NCBI RefSeq assembly: GCF_000210915.2
Contig: NC_016620.1
Coordinates: 992,001-1,056,000 of the forward strand
DNA: 64,000 nucleotides
Source: Halobacteriovorax marinus SJ
GTDB taxonomy: Bacteria; Bdellovibrionota; Bacteriovoracia; Bacteriovoracales; Bacteriovoracaceae
Direction: 5' to 3'
Position numbers and translations under genes: made by a program. Positions 30,746-56,168 of this stretch are shown here, in pieces. A model generated the notes under the pieces. That model saw nothing but the letters and a program-made list of their open reading frames with translations, was not told the origin of the DNA and ran no database searches. The stretch's first letter is position 1, and every line of letters starts with the position of its first letter.

Positions 30746-30821
30746 GGGCCCTTAGCTCAGCTGGGAGAGCGCTTCGCTGGCAGCGAAGAGGTCAGCGGTT
30801 CGATCCCGCTAGGGTCCACCA
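30746..30821 (+). tRNA. tRNA-Ala (anticodon GGC)
   Basis: Full cloverleaf: acceptor GGGCCCT/AGGGTCC (one G-T pair), D-arm GCTC-GAGC, anticodon stem CTTCG/CGAAG with loop CTGGCAG (anticodon GGC), T-arm AGCGG-TTCGATC-CCGCT. The 3' CCA is encoded. It lies at the left border of the small genomic island. Confidence 0.96.
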
Positions 30822-30858: not shown

Positions 30859-30863
30859 GTTTC

Positions 30864-30903
30864 TTATGTACACTTATTGGATTCAAGCACCTAGTTCATG
30901 CGG
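30864..30903 (+). repeat. direct repeat, left copy (candidate attachment site)
   Basis: Begins TTATGTACACTTATTGGATT; differs from the copy at 35961-36000 at 2 of 40 positions. The repeats have the same orientation and flank the recombinase remnants and cargo genes. Confidence 0.8.
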
Positions 30904-31701: not shown

Positions 31702-33114
31702 ATGAGTAAATTTCACATTATTTCAGTAGGTTTTACCATCCCATTTAGTGATTATGACTATCTAAGGTTTAGTGATCAAAAGTCATTGTCCGATGCAGAT
31801 ATCGTTGTTTTAAGCCCTGCTATAAATGAATTTAATAATAATGAATACTTTATCGGCTCAACTTGTTTTCAAGGGCTAGATAGTTTGTCAAATAATCAAA
31901 GCTTTAATCTAAAAAGAGATACTAAGTTTTGGCAAAGAGAAGTTATCGAATATTTAAACTCTGGGAAAACGATCTTTATGGTAATGGATAAGCCTCAAGG
32001 TTTATATGTAGCAACAGGTGAGAAAAGAACTTCTGGAACAGGCAGAAATCAGAAAGTAATTAATATCGTTGACTCCTATAAGCAATTTCAAGTTATTCCT
32101 GATGAGGTTGGAAGTTTAAGAAGTTCGTCTGGGAATAAAATTATTTTAGATGATAAAAAATCGATTTATAGAAGCTTTTTTGAGAAGTTTAAAGGCTTTA
32201 TGGATTATGAAGTAATTCTTGAAGACTTTCCTGGAGAGAAGGTTTTCCTCCAGAATACTACAAAGAAGTGTCTTGGTGGTCATTTGAAAGTTGGAAGCGG
32301 AAACTTAGTTATTTTACCTAGAGTTTATTTTGATGAAGAAGAATTTACAACATATGAAGGAGTTAATGAACGTTGGTCGGATGATGGAGAAAAGTTATCA
32401 AAGATATTCATCAAAGAGCTTATCGGGATTCATAAAACTCTAATTGGAGAAGAGGATCAAGGATCGATACCAGAGTGGTTGTCAAAAAGTCAGTTCTCTT
32501 TATCTACAATAGAAAAGACTGAAGATAAGATATCAGTTATAAATAAAAAAATTGAAGAACTCCAAGAAGAGAAAGAACTTCATATGGCTGAATTACACCA
32601 ACTGAGGCTTCCACAGTTGTTATTATATGGGAAAGGTAAGCTATTAGAGGAAGCTGTGAGAACATCTCTAAGGAGTATGGAGTTTGATGTAACAAATTAT
32701 GATAATGGGGATTCTGAGTTTGATATTGTGATAGAATCTTCTGAAGGTAGAGCGATTGGGGAAGTTGAGGGGAGAGATAATAAGCAAATTGCAGTAAAGA
32801 AATACTCTCAGCTACTTAGAAACATAGGTGAAGACTTCGAACGTGATGAAGTTGAGGTCATGGCTAAAGGAGTATTATTCGGTAATGCTTTTAGAATTAC
32901 TACACCAGAAGAAAGAGGTATTCAATTTACTGAGAAATGCTTGTCGGGTGCTAAAAGTAAAGATATCGCATTAATAAATACCTCTGACCTATTTTTGATT
33001 TATCAATACTTAAGTAATAAAAAAGACAAGGCATTTGCTGCAAAATGTAGAAAAGCCATACTTAATGGAAAAGGATTAGTAAGTTTTCCTAACATCCCCA
33101 ATAAGAAAAAATGA
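31702..33114 (+). CDS. predicted nuclease of a two-gene defense-like operon
   Basis: About 470 residues. The N-terminal about 260 residues form an alpha/beta domain I do not recognise (FHIISVGFTIPFSDYDYLRF, DADIVVLSPAINEF). A coiled coil (about 269-303) leads to a C-terminal restriction-endonuclease-like domain: GKLLEEAVRTSLRSMEFDV, Asp341 in EFDIVIESS, then Glu354 and Glu356 in IGEVEGRDN, a D-ExE variant of the PD-(D/E)xK site. The start is the ATG after GAGG; an upstream TTG (31663) has no site. The stop overlaps the SIR2-like gene start (ATGA), so the two are translated together. An RNA or DNA target cannot be told. Confidence 0.75.
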   Translation: MSKFHIISVGFTIPFSDYDYLRFSDQKSLSDADIVVLSPAINEFNNNEYFIGSTCFQGLDSLSNNQSFNLKRDTKFWQREVIEYLNSGKTIFMVMDKPQGLYVATGEKRTSGTGRNQKVINIVDSYKQFQVIPDEVGSLRSSSGNKIILDDKKSIYRSFFEKFKGFMDYEVILEDFPGEKVFLQNTTKKCLGGHLKVGSGNLVILPRVYFDEEEFTTYEGVNERWSDDGEKLSKIFIKELIGIHKTLIGEEDQGSIPEWLSKSQFSLSTIEKTEDKISVINKKIEELQEEKELHMAELHQLRLPQLLLYGKGKLLEEAVRTSLRSMEFDVTNYDNGDSEFDIVIESSEGRAIGEVEGRDNKQIAVKKYSQLLRNIGEDFERDEVEVMAKGVLFGNAFRITTPEERGIQFTEKCLSGAKSKDIALINTSDLFLIYQYLSNKKDKAFAAKCRKAILNGKGLVSFPNIPNKKK

Positions 33115-34115
33115 AGTTAAATGATGTTTTATTAGTTATTGGAGCAGGTGCACATGTTCCTTATGGATTCCCTACTGGTGCACAATTGAGAGAAGATATC
33201 TTAGAGCTAGAAGAAGCTGGCTTCAATTATCACACTCGTACAATATCTCATTATGCAGATGATATTAGGAAAGGATACGAATTATTTAATTCTGTAGGAA
33301 TGATAGTTTATAAAGATGATGAATTCTTTAAAGATGCTGAGCAGAATAGCTCTAACTGGAAAGAAATTTACATCACAAAGCAAGTAAGGGAGTTCGTAAA
33401 AGTTTTTAGAGAGTCACAGAATCCATCAATTGACTCTTATCTAGCAACGTTTACAGAAGGTACAGAAGTACTCCCTGAGTACCGGTTGCACATTAAAATT
33501 GGAAAAATAATTATTGAAGGTATTATTAAACATTATCTTGGAAAAATCTCAGTTGGACGAAAATATGAATGGATTCAACACTTATTTAACACACACTATC
33601 CAGAGTGGACAAATGTAGAATATCATAGCTCTGCACCGTTAAATATTATTACCTTCAATTACGATACCTTTTTTGAAAGTTGCTTAGAGCAATACCTCAA
33701 ACACAACTTTTTAAAAAACTACAGAAACTTGAAAACTGAACTTGTTAACATAGAGCATGTGTATGGCTCGGTTAAACAAATCGATACCTTAAAGGTAATT
33801 GGTGAAGATAGATATGCTGAGAGTTTAGAAGTATCTAATAAATTAGCTAACATCATTAATAGAGTAAAGAAAATTTACTTTCTAGGGTTTGGATTTGATA
33901 AATCTAACTTAGAACTTCTTTTTTCAAAAGCTAATCAAAGGCATTTACAAAATATATCTATGTTCTCAACAAACATTGGACTTAATGAGTTTGATACTGT
34001 TGATATTGAAAAGATTTGTGATGGAAAGTTTAGTATCGATTTTTATGAGAATGAACTTGATAAGGTTTGTAGCTTCTCATTGATTAAAGACAGAGAACCC
34101 CTGTTAAATGAATAA
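33111..34115 (+). CDS. SIR2-like domain protein, partner of the nuclease
   Basis: 334 residues. SIR2-type NAD-binding motifs are present: VLLVIGAGAHVPYGFPTG (residues 7-24), LNIITFNYDTFFES (about 178-191), EHVYGSV (about 215) and YFLGFGFDKSNLELL (about 257-271), with a helical insert between the first two. SIR2 domains in phage defense (ThsA, DSR, SIR2-HerA, SIR2-pAgo) degrade NAD+ after infection is sensed. The 4-bp overlap with the nuclease gene implies a joint system. It has no membrane segment or signal peptide. Confidence 0.8.
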   Translation: MKLNDVLLVIGAGAHVPYGFPTGAQLREDILELEEAGFNYHTRTISHYADDIRKGYELFNSVGMIVYKDDEFFKDAEQNSSNWKEIYITKQVREFVKVFRESQNPSIDSYLATFTEGTEVLPEYRLHIKIGKIIIEGIIKHYLGKISVGRKYEWIQHLFNTHYPEWTNVEYHSSAPLNIITFNYDTFFESCLEQYLKHNFLKNYRNLKTELVNIEHVYGSVKQIDTLKVIGEDRYAESLEVSNKLANIINRVKKIYFLGFGFDKSNLELLFSKANQRHLQNISMFSTNIGLNEFDTVDIEKICDGKFSIDFYENELDKVCSFSLIKDREPLLNE

Positions 34116-34176
34116 ACTTTCAGAAATACTGTATATTCAGTCCCAGAGGCGCTGATTAAGATTTAGAGGAAGAATT

Positions 34177-34968
34177 ATGAAGTTAGGCCTTAATCATCAT
34201 GATTTACAGATTCTTGGAGAGATTGACTGGGCAGAAGGTGCTTTTGCTTTTGTTAAAACTCTAAAAGGTGTCATTGGACTTAAATATGAGGCAAACTTGC
34301 TTGGAAAAGAGATTTCAAGTAATGAACTTCAAAAAATTAAAGCTACTTTTAGCCAAGAGCTAATTGATACTAAAAAAAGAATAAGTGAGAATGGCGTCCC
34401 TAATGTCTTCATCGAGTTATTTGAGTTAACTAGAAAAAGAGACGTAAAAAAATACTGTAAAGAATTAAAGATCACTGAAAGAGACCTGTTTTTATTGATT
34501 ATGAACTCTGAACAGATAGGATTTTCTCATTCTTCAAAGCATAATAGTTTTGTTCCAGAGCATCATATTTATGATAAAGACGAAATGAATAAGTTATCTG
34601 ACAAAGAATCCTGCTCTAAGACTAGAAAGAAAGTGATGAGTAAAATTTCCGGAACATTTCGAGAAAGAAGAAATGTTAGTTGTCACCTCTTTCATAATGG
34701 AGCAATGTGGCATTGTTTTTACTTCAGTTATGAAGACTCTCAAAATATGCCAAATAAAAAGCAACATTGGAAACATGGAACACATATTCATTATATCTCA
34801 TACATTTGGAATGATGCCAAAGATGATTTATGGCAAGCTCTAGATAAAAGAAAGATTTCTTCCACAAACTTTCATATTAGCTTTGATGGGTCCTTGAATG
34901 AGCCTCTACATATTGCATATATATATGGTAGAGCTGTAATACAAATAACTAGAGAAAGGAAGATTTAG
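34177..34968 (+). CDS. uncharacterised island protein
   Basis: 263 residues, no signal peptide or membrane segment, and no family recognised. The N-terminal 130 residues are helical (KATFSQELIDTKKRISENG). The C-terminal half is rich in His, Trp and aromatic residues (CHLFHNGAMWHCFYFSYED, KKQHWKHGTHIHYISYIW), which could form a metal or nucleic-acid-binding site. GAGGAAG precedes the ATG. It follows the SIR2-like gene by 61 bp in the same direction and may be a third member of that operon. Confidence 0.6.
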   Translation: MKLGLNHHDLQILGEIDWAEGAFAFVKTLKGVIGLKYEANLLGKEISSNELQKIKATFSQELIDTKKRISENGVPNVFIELFELTRKRDVKKYCKELKITERDLFLLIMNSEQIGFSHSSKHNSFVPEHHIYDKDEMNKLSDKESCSKTRKKVMSKISGTFRERRNVSCHLFHNGAMWHCFYFSYEDSQNMPNKKQHWKHGTHIHYISYIWNDAKDDLWQALDKRKISSTNFHISFDGSLNEPLHIAYIYGRAVIQITRERKI

Positions 34969-35187: not shown

Positions 35188-35889
35188 TTAATTTTTGCTG
35201 GGTACTTTATTTTTAAAAATAAGGTTCAGCAATTCAGTTATTAATAAACTAATAAGAGAAACGAGTAGCCCAATCAATATGAGACTAAAAATTACTTGGT
35301 TTTTAATTAAAAGTCTTACTTCATTAGTTATTGGAGTAATGTCACCGTAACCAGTGGTCGTTGAAGTAACTACACTAAAGTACTCAAAGTCTGAAAGGTT
35401 TAGAAGTAGGCCTTTTTTCTCCCTGGAATGTGTTCTATATTTACTAGTGATTATAGTAAGTTTTCGAGCTGTCTCTTCCGCATCTTTTTTCGCTATTGCG
35501 TGGAGTTGATTAATATCTCCTGTGATCTTTTCATTATTCAAAATTGTTTTTTTTACACCTTCTATAAATTCTGGAGACGTGGAGTTTTTATGTCGGTCTA
35601 GAGCTTTAACTTCTTTCGTTTTTATTGCATGTCTAAGGTCTGAAAGCAGGGATGAGGCAGCTGTCTGGTTCGTGAAGTTGCCCTGTAGCTCTATGACTGT
35701 ATTTCTTAAAGTAAGTAGTTTGTTTTCGTATTGTAATTTTTTAGCGTTAATTATTGAATCACTAATACTAAAGCCAGATATATCATCAAGGTAGAGGTTG
35801 TGGTACTTCTTTGCATAATGACCAATTTGATAGTAATAAGCAGCTGAGAAAATAATGATCAAAAAAGTAATGGAAGAGATTTTTTTCAT
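35188..35889 (-). CDS. two-TM potassium channel family protein with long extracellular insert
   Basis: 233 residues. TM1 is about residues 7-23. The pore helix and selectivity filter are clear (FEYFSVVTSTTTGYGDITP; GYGD at 180-183). TM2 is about 196-222. The roughly 130 residues between TM1 and the pore are mostly helical and charged, far longer than the short turret of KcsA-type channels, and there is no cytoplasmic RCK domain. It would form a tetrameric inner-membrane K+ pore. It lies at the right end of the island on the opposite strand to the SIR2 operon and could be a separate effector or passenger. Confidence 0.78.
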   Translation of the reverse strand: MKKISSITFLIIIFSAAYYYQIGHYAKKYHNLYLDDISGFSISDSIINAKKLQYENKLLTLRNTVIELQGNFTNQTAASSLLSDLRHAIKTKEVKALDRHKNSTSPEFIEGVKKTILNNEKITGDINQLHAIAKKDAEETARKLTIITSKYRTHSREKKGLLLNLSDFEYFSVVTSTTTGYGDITPITNEVRLLIKNQVIFSLILIGLLVSLISLLITELLNLIFKNKVPSKN

Positions 35890-35960
35890 TTATTTATATT
35901 AAGTGAAAATTGTGGAGTTGTCACTTCATGCTTAATTGCACTGGTGAGCGATCAGTTTTT

Positions 35961-36000
35961 TTATGTACACTTATTGGATTCAAACACCTAGTTGATGCGG
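35961..36000 (+). repeat. direct repeat, right copy (candidate attachment site)
   Basis: Begins TTATGTACACTTATTGGATT; 38 of 40 positions match the left copy at 30864-30903 (differences G/A and C/G). It marks the right border of the island. Confidence 0.8.
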
Positions 36001-53111: not shown

Positions 53112-56100
53112 ATGGAGTTCAAATTGAATTATTTGCTTAAAGTCACTCTAGTACTCGTACTTTCTCTCAATATTCATGCAACTAATAAATGTATAAAAAG
53201 TGAAGTCCTGTCTCTTAACGATACGGTTGTAGGAAATATAGAGCACAGAATTGTTGGAATTAAAAATGTTCTCAGTGGTAAAGGGGGAGATAGCTCTCTA
53301 ATCTGGAATGTCTTTGGAAATGACTTCGACTTTAATAGGTCTGATGAATATATATCTAAACTAGAGACAATAAACTCAAAGTCTAGGGGAATATCTGAGG
53401 AGTATGAGTATCTATCAAATTGCTTAAAGGAATTAAAGTTAACTAAGAGAATGGCCCAGCTTGAAAAACTCTCTATAGAATATAATAACTTTAAAGTACA
53501 ACTCTTTAAAAAGAATAAGGCCCTTAATAATTCAATAAAGCTAAATATTGATTCAAATAGCTCTATTCCTTCATTGGCCAAAGAGATCGATGAAGAGTTT
53601 ATTGTTCTGGAGAAGAGTAAGAGAGATATAGAAAAGGAGTTGGCACAAAATGAGTCAAAAACCTTAATAGATTCTAACTCAAAAGAAGTCGTATTCTATC
53701 AAAACTCTCTGCTTAAATTTAAGTTAGATTTAATTAAGACGAGGATACTCTTTAATAGAAACCTACAACAGAAAATTGAATACTTTAATTTGAAAAGTTT
53801 AAAGCTATCAAATCTTTCTTCAAATTATGAAGAAAGAGATACTGAAACTATTGAGGCACAATTTGTTGAAGTTGAAAAGATTTGGAAAGAGGTCACTAAG
53901 CAAAACTTCTATGATTTAATTAAAGGATCTTTATTCTTTGATATTCCAAGAGTACCAGGGGTTTTTACTTCAAAAAGAAATGTTGAAAGTGAGATTAGAG
54001 CGACCTTAGAGACCGAGAGAAGTAAAGTTAGTACTTTTAGAAAGGAGTCTATCTCTGATCTAACTAAGAAGAAAGAAGAAGAACTAAAGCTATTAAATAA
54101 TTTATTAATTCAAATAAACTCCCTTCGAAGTAATTATTATAATAAGTTAAGTTTTAGCTTTTTATCTGGTCGATTTTTTACTTCATCTTACTTAAGTTCT
54201 TTAAAGAATGAAATATATGCATCTCCTTATCGTTTACTGAACTATGTTTATTCTAAGTATCTCTTCGTGAATGAAAAACTCTCTTTAGGGAGGGATGGAA
54301 TAACGGATTTAAGTTTATTGCTCTTTAAATATATGATGATCATCTTAGGTGTCTTTAGCTTTAAATTGGTTCTTCATAAAATTTATGATTTCTTAGAGAA
54401 AAAGAATAGAGGACTTGTTTCAAAGAGAAAGCGCTCGGAGTTCTTTAGCTACTTAACGACAATTTGGAATAAGCATAGTGATAACTTCTACAGTATTTCA
54501 TGGCTATTTTTGTTATTTGTACTATCTCATTTTGAACTATTAAATAATATATCAATTATATTGAATATCTTTATAATTCTAATTGTTGCCAAGATCATAA
54601 GGTCCCTTGTCATTCTCTTCCTTAGTACAGTTTCATCAATAGACTCTAGAAATTATAGAAGCTTTAAATTGAAGGCCGAGGGAACAGCTGGACGATTCGC
54701 AAATATTTACCTTGTATATTCCTTAATCATGGTTCTTTTAAATCTTACAGTTGGTAAGGTTTATATTTATTCAATCGTAAAGTTTGTTGCAATCATCTAC
54801 TCACTATATCAAGTCATCGAAACATCTTCTGTATGGTCAAAGGAATTTAGTACTTATACGGAAAAGAAGTTTTCTGGAGTCATTGTAGATAAGATTGAGC
54901 GCTTTTATAAATTCTTACCATCGAAGATTCAGGGGATCTTTAGTTTTCTCTTTATCTCCATTTTAACAATCGTGAATATTTTTATAAGAATGACGGAAGA
55001 CTTCGCAATTTCTAAGAAGATTTCTGCAAATCTATTTAGAAAGCAAGTGGAGAGTGTAGAAGTTGAAGAGGGAGCGAGTGAGCAGATTCCTAATGAATAT
55101 AAGGAGAAGTTTACTTTTAACTCTCTCGATGTAGAAGAGCACTATGTAAATCACACATCTGAAATTGAAGAGTCAATCTGTAATGAGATTGTAGAGTGGA
55201 TAGATGAGAAGTCCGAGGAGCACTCTGTCGTTGTCTATGGAGACAAGGGAATAGGGAAGACGACGCTTCTTAAAAAAGTTATTAGGGATATGGAGGGGAG
55301 ATATACTGACGAGTTAAGTTGTGTGTACACCAAAGTTCCTGCTAAAACCATTGATAGAGAGAAGGCCCATACTTTTATCGTTAACGCTCTCGGATTGGAG
55401 GAGAATGGCTCCTTTGATCTCTATAAGCTAGATAAGATGCTAGAGAAGAAAACAGTTCTTGTTATAGATGAAGCTCAGAACTTATTTCTATCCCATACGA
55501 AGGGTTTCTCTGCCTATAATGGACTTCTTAATATGATTAATCTGAGTACTGAGAATATCTTTTGGGTCCTATCATTTAATAAGTATAGTTGGCTCTATTT
55601 AGATCGAGCATTTGGTCGCAGCCAGTTCTTTAGAAATATTTTTCCTCTTAAGGGATGGGATGATACAGCTATAAAAGAACTTATTTTTAAAAGGCATCAC
55701 AGTTCAGAGTACAAACTCTCATATGATCTTTTAATTAATGCAACGAGATCTCAAGATGAGATGGATCGCTACACAACAGTAGAGTCGAAGTTCTTTAAGC
55801 TACTGTGGGAGCTCTCAAGAGGAAATCCTAGGGCAGCTCTCTATCTCTGGTTAACATCACTTTCTAGAAGAAATAGTAAGACATTTAATGTGCATATACC
55901 TAAGGATGCTGACTTAGATAGTTTGGACAAATTAGCTGACGATATATTCTTTGTGATTGCCTCTGTTTTAAAACATGAAAATCTTTCTCCCAATGAAATA
56001 GAGAGTACTACAAACTTACCGAAGGGAATTGTTAGAAACGCAATCAAGGTTGGACAAGAGAGAAACTTCTTTTTTAAAGATAAACATGGAAGATATATGA

Positions 56101-56168
56101 TTGAGATATCTTCCCAATACGGACTTATTAAGTACTTAAAGTCGAAGAATTTTATATATGGATACTAA
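53112..56168 (+). CDS. membrane protein with MscK-like N-terminal half and C-terminal P-loop ATPase
   Basis: 1018 residues. A signal peptide (1-23) is followed by a long periplasmic helical/coiled-coil region to about 390, then about six membrane helices (402-425, 462-476, 480-508, 529-548, 549-570, 607-626). From about 660 a cytoplasmic AAA/STAND-type ATPase follows: Walker A GDKGIGKTTLL near 709, Walker B TVLVIDEAQNLF near 780, Arg-rich helices, and a winged-helix-like tail (LSPNEIESTTNLPKGIV). The N-terminal half resembles the coiled-coil sensors of large MscS-type channels, but the MscS pore is encoded by the next gene, which overlaps by 11 bp. TTG 53124 with GGAG upstream is an alternative start. 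Confidence 0.75.
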   Translation: MEFKLNYLLKVTLVLVLSLNIHATNKCIKSEVLSLNDTVVGNIEHRIVGIKNVLSGKGGDSSLIWNVFGNDFDFNRSDEYISKLETINSKSRGISEEYEYLSNCLKELKLTKRMAQLEKLSIEYNNFKVQLFKKNKALNNSIKLNIDSNSSIPSLAKEIDEEFIVLEKSKRDIEKELAQNESKTLIDSNSKEVVFYQNSLLKFKLDLIKTRILFNRNLQQKIEYFNLKSLKLSNLSSNYEERDTETIEAQFVEVEKIWKEVTKQNFYDLIKGSLFFDIPRVPGVFTSKRNVESEIRATLETERSKVSTFRKESISDLTKKKEEELKLLNNLLIQINSLRSNYYNKLSFSFLSGRFFTSSYLSSLKNEIYASPYRLLNYVYSKYLFVNEKLSLGRDGITDLSLLLFKYMMIILGVFSFKLVLHKIYDFLEKKNRGLVSKRKRSEFFSYLTTIWNKHSDNFYSISWLFLLFVLSHFELLNNISIILNIFIILIVAKIIRSLVILFLSTVSSIDSRNYRSFKLKAEGTAGRFANIYLVYSLIMVLLNLTVGKVYIYSIVKFVAIIYSLYQVIETSSVWSKEFSTYTEKKFSGVIVDKIERFYKFLPSKIQGIFSFLFISILTIVNIFIRMTEDFAISKKISANLFRKQVESVEVEEGASEQIPNEYKEKFTFNSLDVEEHYVNHTSEIEESICNEIVEWIDEKSEEHSVVVYGDKGIGKTTLLKKVIRDMEGRYTDELSCVYTKVPAKTIDREKAHTFIVNALGLEENGSFDLYKLDKMLEKKTVLVIDEAQNLFLSHTKGFSAYNGLLNMINLSTENIFWVLSFNKYSWLYLDRAFGRSQFFRNIFPLKGWDDTAIKELIFKRHHSSEYKLSYDLLINATRSQDEMDRYTTVESKFFKLLWELSRGNPRAALYLWLTSLSRRNSKTFNVHIPKDADLDSLDKLADDIFFVIASVLKHENLSPNEIESTTNLPKGIVRNAIKVGQERNFFFKDKHGRYMIEISSQYGLIKYLKSKNFIYGY

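What the first reader, a model, noticed from the sequence alone, without database searches (positions are those of the whole stretch)
31702..34968. Candidate undescribed defense module: EVEG nuclease + SIR2-like + third gene
A gene for a protein with unknown N-terminal domain, coiled coil and a D-ExE nuclease domain overlaps (ATGA) a SIR2-like gene with clear NAD-binding motifs, and a third gene with a His/aromatic-rich domain follows. SIR2 effectors that deplete NAD+ are established in several anti-phage systems (Thoeris, DSR, SIR2-HerA, SIR2-pAgo). I know of none with this nuclease partner. Its place on a small island supports a defense role. Whether the nuclease senses, regulates or acts is unknown.
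Basis: partly seen in the sequence, partly recalled or inferred. Interest (0 to 1): 0.85.

Follow-up and report, generated by a model that had tools for sequence, protein, structure and literature searches.

The report
Solo nuclease beside SIR2 on island
A small mobile DNA island carries an uncharacterised DNA-cutting protein next to an NAD-destroying-type protein; relatives show the DNA-cutting gene normally travels alone between bacteria and archaea, so this is most likely a cluster of separate candidate virus-defence genes and not a dedicated three-gene machine.

Summary
The genes exist as described: A (31702-33114), overlapped ATGA by B (33111-34115), then C (34177-34968). They lie on a ~5.1 kb segment next to tRNA-Ala, bounded by a 44-bp repeat found only twice in the genome, with a decayed serine recombinase. 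B is a SIR2_2 protein with both catalytic residues. A, which matches no known protein family, is confidently modelled as a glutamine-amidotransferase-like N-domain, a long helix and a PD-(D/E)xK nuclease domain (FokI/NucS/HindIII-like) with a complete E-D-ExE active site.

The 'module' reading fails its own test. About 60 relatives of A in many phyla, phages and plasmids almost never sit beside SIR2 (1 case, a different SIR2 type) and never beside C. Close relatives in unrelated hosts (e.g. Algoriphagus and Adhaeribacter, 93% identical DNA) share nothing beyond the A gene: A moves as a one-gene cassette. B and C relatives also occur elsewhere with other neighbours.

Best reading: A is an undescribed single-gene nuclease family, probably anti-phage/anti-plasmid (some relatives adjoin Thoeris, SIR2 or retron genes), here collected with a SIR2 NADase-type gene and an unknown gene. 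A specific A-B partnership in this lineage is not excluded.

The parts
30746..30821 (+). tRNA-Ala (GGC), left flank of the island
   Evidence: ARAGORN; same tRNA and upstream outer-membrane-protein gene in sister species, followed by different genes in each (in G059 the tRNA was not called cleanly)
30860..30903 (.). left copy of 44-bp direct repeat (att-like)
   Evidence: only two copies in the whole genome
30911..31330 (-). decayed serine recombinase: N-terminal piece (MIRVSSQKQGDRGTSLEEQEKAIRE, stop inside) and later piece (AQGKAPFGYRN)
   Evidence: reading of the frames; no library match for the 67-aa piece, so assignment is by eye
31702..33114 (+). gene A, 470 aa: GATase1-like N domain + long helix + PD-(D/E)xK nuclease; undescribed family
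31702..32454 (+). A residues 1-251: degenerate class-I glutamine-amidotransferase-like / ThuA-like domain with hairpin 100-127 carrying SGTGRNQK
   Evidence: VIA-align Z about 10 to 2gk3, 3rht, 1t0b, 5fmr
32503..32628 (+). A residues 268-309: long (coiled-coil-like) helix
   Evidence: model secondary structure
32632..33087 (+). A residues 311-462: PD-(D/E)xK nuclease domain; E316, D341, E354, E356, Q370
33111..34115 (+). gene B, 334 aa SIR2-like (SIR2_2), N183 and H216 conserved
   Evidence: Pfam PF13289 E 9.4e-9; alignment; profile finds KomC and 7uxt in PDB
34177..34968 (+). gene C, 263 aa, unknown, conserved Arg/His cluster
   Evidence: no family match
35188..35889 (-). ion-channel-like membrane protein inside the island
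   Evidence: Pfam Ion_trans_2 E 3.1e-10
35957..36000 (.). right copy of 44-bp direct repeat

Best explanation
The locus is a small relic mobile island whose cargo is a set of separate, independently moving candidate defence genes. A is a single-gene nuclease system: its GATase-like N domain (no conserved catalytic cysteine) acts as sensor or regulator, the long helix joins two subunits, and the paired PD-(D/E)xK domains cut invading (or, in abortive infection, any) DNA. B is a SIR2-type NADase effector that depletes NAD+ on infection. C is an unknown His-rich protein. A and B share a transcript through the ATGA overlap but neither needs the other. Shown: gene boundaries, A's modelled fold and active-site residues, B's SIR2 signature, the island repeats, A's one-gene mobility, absence of recurrent partners. 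Inferred: defence role, dimer, sensor role of the N domain, NAD+ depletion, shared transcript, independence of A and B in this strain.
For: A's relatives (53 genome loci; 8 viral contigs; Enterobacter plasmids, mostly conjugative) have no recurring neighbour. In ten comparisons of related A genes in different contexts, the shared DNA reaches no further than about 90 bp outside the A reading frame, including Algoriphagus against Adhaeribacter at 93% identity over 1451 bp. Nuclease core. Defence setting: A directly downstream of ThsB-like TIR genes (L004), of a ThsA-like SIR2 gene (L014), of a type VII retron RT and DUF3800 gene (L032); Mrr-like nuclease neighbours; carried on phages and plasmids. 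Sporadic: 1 of 369 genomes of one class at full length, 1 of 291 of the window's own phylum. B. Island.
Against: No functional assay. The ATGA overlap of A and B is tighter than expected for unrelated cargo. A is most often beside ordinary genes, and PADLOC hits were also found 6-10 kb away, so a defence role rests on few adjacencies. A nuclease of a mobile element could instead serve replication, repair or element exclusion. The family set was partly found through the SGTGRNQK pattern, so that motif's invariance is partly circular.
Confidence: 0.68

Rival explanations
1. A and B are a dedicated two-gene system in this lineage: A senses invading DNA and triggers, or is backed up by, B's NAD+ depletion; translation is coupled by the ATGA overlap.
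For: ATGA overlap; B is a bare SIR2 domain without a recognised sensor of its own; A relatives adjoin a ThsA-like SIR2 gene in Marinomonas and ThsB-like TIR genes in Desulfonatronospira, against about 0.04 such adjacencies expected from the genome-wide density of SIR2_2 and ThsB_TIR genes (60 matches in about 244 Mb); a phage carries a distant A relative and a B relative 3.8 kb apart. A of the window sits on a long branch of its own, so its lineage could have acquired a partner.
Against: About 60 A loci lack B; A moves alone; the neighbouring NADase genes are of different types and positions; clustering of unrelated defence genes in islands explains occasional adjacency. B's relatives are not next to A.
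Confidence: 0.17
2. The A family is not for defence but is a selfish or housekeeping nuclease cassette of mobile elements (exclusion, repair or homing).
For: One-gene mobility with gene-length boundaries; present in phages, plasmids and islands; many neighbours are ordinary genes.
Against: No integrase or homing-type domain in A; adjacency to Thoeris, SIR2, retron and Mrr-type genes in several loci; sporadic distribution typical of defence genes.
Confidence: 0.13
3. All three genes form the conserved three-gene defence module proposed by the first reader.
For: Same strand, tight spacing, one island.
Against: C was not found near A or B elsewhere; its 50%-identical relative follows other genes, and those two genes occur without C in a sister species.
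Confidence: 0.02

Closest known systems
FokI / HindIII / NucS-EndoMS PD-(D/E)xK nucleases (and AF1548, 1y88)
   Same: Fold of A residues 311-462 and E-D-ExE/K active-site order; FokI cleavage domain also acts as a dimer (general knowledge).
   Different: No detectable sequence similarity; A has a GATase-like N domain instead of a known DNA-recognition domain; ExE instead of ExK in most members.
Shedu (SduA), single-gene PD-(D/E)xK defence
   Same: One gene, variable N-terminal part, C-terminal PD-(D/E)xK nuclease (works-like analogy, from general knowledge).
   Different: None of 51 A members matches a Shedu family in Pfam at E<=0.1.
Class-I glutamine amidotransferase-like / ThuA-like / IFT52 N-terminal domains
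   Same: Fold of A residues 1-251 (Z about 10).
   Different: No conserved Cys, so no GATase chemistry; extra hairpin with SGTGRNQK.
SIR2-type defence NADases (ThsA of Thoeris, KomC, DSR2, Nezha)
   Same: B has the SIR2_2 domain and catalytic Asn/His; its profile finds KomC and 7uxt in the PDB.
   Different: B is 334 aa with no recognised SLOG, HerA, Argonaute, TIR or long C-terminal partner in the island.

Membership tests
PD-(D/E)xK nuclease superfamily (protein A) | alpha-beta core with acidic triad order E...D...(E/D)x(K/E) and conserved fold | tested here: met
   Model pLDDT 92; FokI Z 12.6, HindIII 9.3; E316, D341, E354, Q370 in 50/50, E356 46 E/4 K
Class-I glutamine amidotransferase (protein A, N domain) | GATase1 fold | tested here: met
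   Z about 10 to several GATase1-like chains, about 160-177 residues aligned
Class-I glutamine amidotransferase (protein A, N domain) | Catalytic Cys of the Cys-His-Glu triad | tested here: not met
   No conserved Cys in residues 1-251 of 50 members
Shedu (SduA) | Match to the curated SduA/DUF4263 nuclease family | tested here: not met
   No such Pfam match for A or its 50 relatives at E<=0.1, no PADLOC match for the window A at E<=1; distant relation not excluded
SIR2-like NADase family (protein B) | SIR2_2 profile above curated cut-off | tested here: met
   35.9 bits against 24.5
SIR2-like NADase family (protein B) | Catalytic Asn and His | tested here: met
   N183 in FNYD and H216 in HxYG invariant with relatives
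SIR2-like NADase family (protein B) | NAD+ hydrolysis on infection | not testable with these tools
   needs assay
Thoeris | ThsB TIR gene beside a ThsA effector | tested here: not met
   No TIR match among the island genes
Nezha / SIR2-HerA | HerA-type ATPase partner | tested here: not met
   No ATPase domain in A or C; A's fold is GATase-like plus nuclease
DSR1/DSR2 | SIR2 fused to a long C-terminal region (about 1000 aa protein) | tested here: not met
   B is 334 aa
SIR2-pAgo (SPARSA) | Short Argonaute partner | tested here: not met
   No Argonaute/PIWI match in the island genes
Kongming (KomABC) | KomA/KomB partners of a KomC SIR2 | tested here: inconclusive
   B profile matches KomC weakly (E 0.004); A and C match no Pfam family
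Conserved three-gene A-B-C module | Recurrent co-occurrence of the three genes | tested here: not met

The most novel reading that the evidence does not exclude
The GATase-like/PD-(D/E)xK nuclease is a partner for NAD+-consuming enzymes: its N domain senses an NAD-derived signal or invading DNA and links a DNA-cutting arm to a SIR2 or TIR arm, giving a two-armed (DNA and NAD+) defence that recurs loosely in this island, beside ThsA-like SIR2 in Marinomonas, beside ThsB-like TIRs in Desulfonatronospira and in a phage.
Probability: 0.13. Interest if true: 0.8.

Novelty: new variant of a known kind. Interest (0 to 1): 0.5.

Why it matters
If the best reading holds, A defines an undescribed single-gene nuclease family spread through bacteria, archaea, phages and plasmids, missing from Pfam, NCBIfam, PADLOC and PHROGs as searched here, with a domain pairing (degenerate amidotransferase-like domain plus PD-(D/E)xK nuclease) not known to me in defence. 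It moves as a one-gene cassette, so it can be tested by cloning one gene. It also shows that tight spacing on a small island is not evidence of a functional module.

Tried and rejected
Three-gene module: rejected by neighbourhoods. First genome scan with A alone found nothing because it used unconserved peptides; repeating with a two-row alignment gave 53 loci. Viral scans with B or C alone and with the C pair alignment found no relatives; the six-row C alignment was too divergent to search. Structure of C from a single sequence was unusable (pLDDT 36) and was not searched. The profile of A finds nothing credible in PDB sequences, and Foldseek alone gave no match at E<=0.001 in PDB or viral models; the domain assignments rest on VIA-align. 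PADLOC scans of near and far neighbours both showed defence genes, so near enrichment over the wider island was not shown. Literature searches found no described system with this architecture, within an open-access library only.

Full report
What is there. The region holds three + strand genes: A 31702-33114, B 33111-34115 (ATGA overlap with A) and C 34177-34968. Upstream is tRNA-Ala (GGC) at 30746-30821. A 44-bp direct repeat lies just after the tRNA (30860-30903) and again at 35957-36000, 93% identical; its 40-bp core occurs nowhere else in the 3.44-Mb genome with up to 3 mismatches. Between the left repeat and A the minus strand carries pieces of a serine recombinase with a stop inside (read by eye). 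So A, B, C and a minus-strand ion-channel gene (35188-35889; Pfam Ion_trans_2) lie on a ~5.1-kb relic mobile segment. Four sister species share the upstream outer-membrane-protein gene and, in three, a cleanly called tRNA-Ala, but each has different genes downstream: the site is variable in the genus.

Protein B. Pfam SIR2_2 at E 9.4e-9, above its cut-off. Relatives share GAGA, FNYD and HxYG, with N183 and H216 in the catalytic positions known from SIR2 enzymes (assignment of function from general knowledge). A small profile finds KomC, a SIR2 NADase, and 7uxt in the PDB with weak E-values (0.002-0.007). B is only 334 aa with no second domain recognised.

Protein A. No match above a curated cut-off in Pfam, and none of note in NCBIfam, PADLOC or PHROGs. 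A tblastn search found 37% identical full-length relatives on Enterobacter plasmids, annotated as hypothetical. An alignment of the two found 53 loci in bacterial and archaeal genomes and, over two scans, 8 viral contigs. Members span Pseudomonadota, Bacteroidota, Spirochaetota, Thermodesulfobacteriota, Campylobacterota, a Methanosarcina, and distant Actinomycetota and Bacillota forms; the window's A is on a long branch of its own, at most 38% identical to any other. The structure model (50-row alignment, mean pLDDT 92, pTM 0.59, so the arrangement of the domains is uncertain) shows: residues 1-251 like class-I glutamine amidotransferases and ThuA/IFT52-type domains (Z about 10); one long helix 268-309; residues 311-462 a PD-(D/E)xK nuclease like FokI (Z 12.6), AF1548 (12.5), EndoMS/NucS (10.5) and HindIII (9.3). 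No Cys is conserved in the N domain, so amidotransferase chemistry is unlikely. The hairpin at 100-127 carries SGTGRNQK in nearly all members, but this peptide was one of the search patterns, so its invariance is partly circular; independently found members (Enterobacter plasmid L002, viral L057 and L059) also have it, and L058 has SGTGKNQK.

Is it a module? An all-frame search of the A loci with profiles for SIR2 and for C finds one SIR2 gene besides the window's (L014 Marinomonas, 506 aa, ThsA-like, 66 bp upstream) and no C. No neighbour family recurs. The strongest test is: pairs of related A genes in different hosts share DNA only over the A gene. Algoriphagus and Adhaeribacter (different families) are 93% identical over 1451 bp that begin 18 bp before and end 17 bp after the reading frame; Pseudomonas, gammaproteobacterial MAG, viral-contig, rhizobial and Chryseobacterium pairs behave likewise (one viral pair shares a further 137-bp stretch elsewhere; two Pedobacter genomes, 99.9% identical over the whole 21 kb, are simply near-identical and uninformative). 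A therefore moves as a one-gene cassette. B relatives lie in prophage-like contigs or on plasmids beside unrelated genes, and its best relative stands between oppositely oriented genes. C's 50%-identical relative in a related genus follows two small genes that recur at the tRNA-Ala site of a sister species without C.

Why a defence role is still likely. A relatives directly follow ThsB-like TIR genes (L004), the ThsA-like SIR2 gene (L014), and a type VII retron RT/DUF3800 pair (L032), and others are near Mrr-like nucleases. SIR2_2 and ThsB_TIR genes together number 60 in about 244 Mb of these genomes, so about 0.04 immediate adjacencies (within 1.5 kb on either side) would be expected at random over the A loci against 2 seen; clustering in defence islands can explain that, and control genes 6-10 kb away also include defence genes. 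The family is sporadic (one full-length member in 369 genomes of one class, the query genome itself; only the window in 291 genomes of its phylum) and is carried by phages and plasmids.

How it most likely works. Inferred: A is a self-sufficient nuclease; the GATase-like domain regulates it, the long helix pairs subunits, and the PD-(D/E)xK domains cut DNA. B depletes NAD+. They are neighbours because both are defence cargo, possibly expressed together. A two-gene partnership limited to this lineage remains possible (about 0.17).

Novelty. I found no described system with this architecture (open-access papers only). As a kind it is a single-gene nuclease defence candidate, so a new variant of a known kind.

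Noticed in passing
G000:C1 about 778,540-779,640 (L104 8539-9636 -), outside the window: A second SIR2-like gene in the same genome, next to a phage-type integrase and near a nucleoside-deoxyribosyltransferase/TIR-like gene.
   Followed up: partly
L109 2159-7024 (sister species G050): Same tRNA-Ala site holds a transposase gene, a tyrosine-recombinase fragment and a 134-aa + 188-aa gene pair; the same pair precedes the C relative in L074, with a different third gene each time.
   Followed up: partly
L102 3243-9860 (viral contig): Phage carrying a B-like SIR2, a membrane protein, a DNA methyltransferase and a 610-aa distant A relative with ExK instead of ExE (hhalign probability 98%).
   Followed up: partly
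L004 2109-5311: Two ThsB-like TIR genes and a 157-aa gene directly before A, with no SIR2-type ThsA in the locus.
   Followed up: partly
L002 8001-9392 (Enterobacter plasmid): The A reading frame ends about 18 codons early; similarity to the window's C-terminal tail continues past the stop, over the same span in all seven plasmid records listed.
   Followed up: no
L046 10001-11448: A gene split into two adjacent ORFs, apparently disrupted.
   Followed up: no
window 53112-56168: 1018-aa membrane-anchored protein with long helical regions and a C-terminal AAA/NB-ARC-like ATPase (Pfam AAA_22 E 4e-10), no PADLOC match.
   Followed up: partly
window 35188-35889 -: Ion-channel-like gene inside the island, opposite strand to A-B-C.
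   Followed up: no
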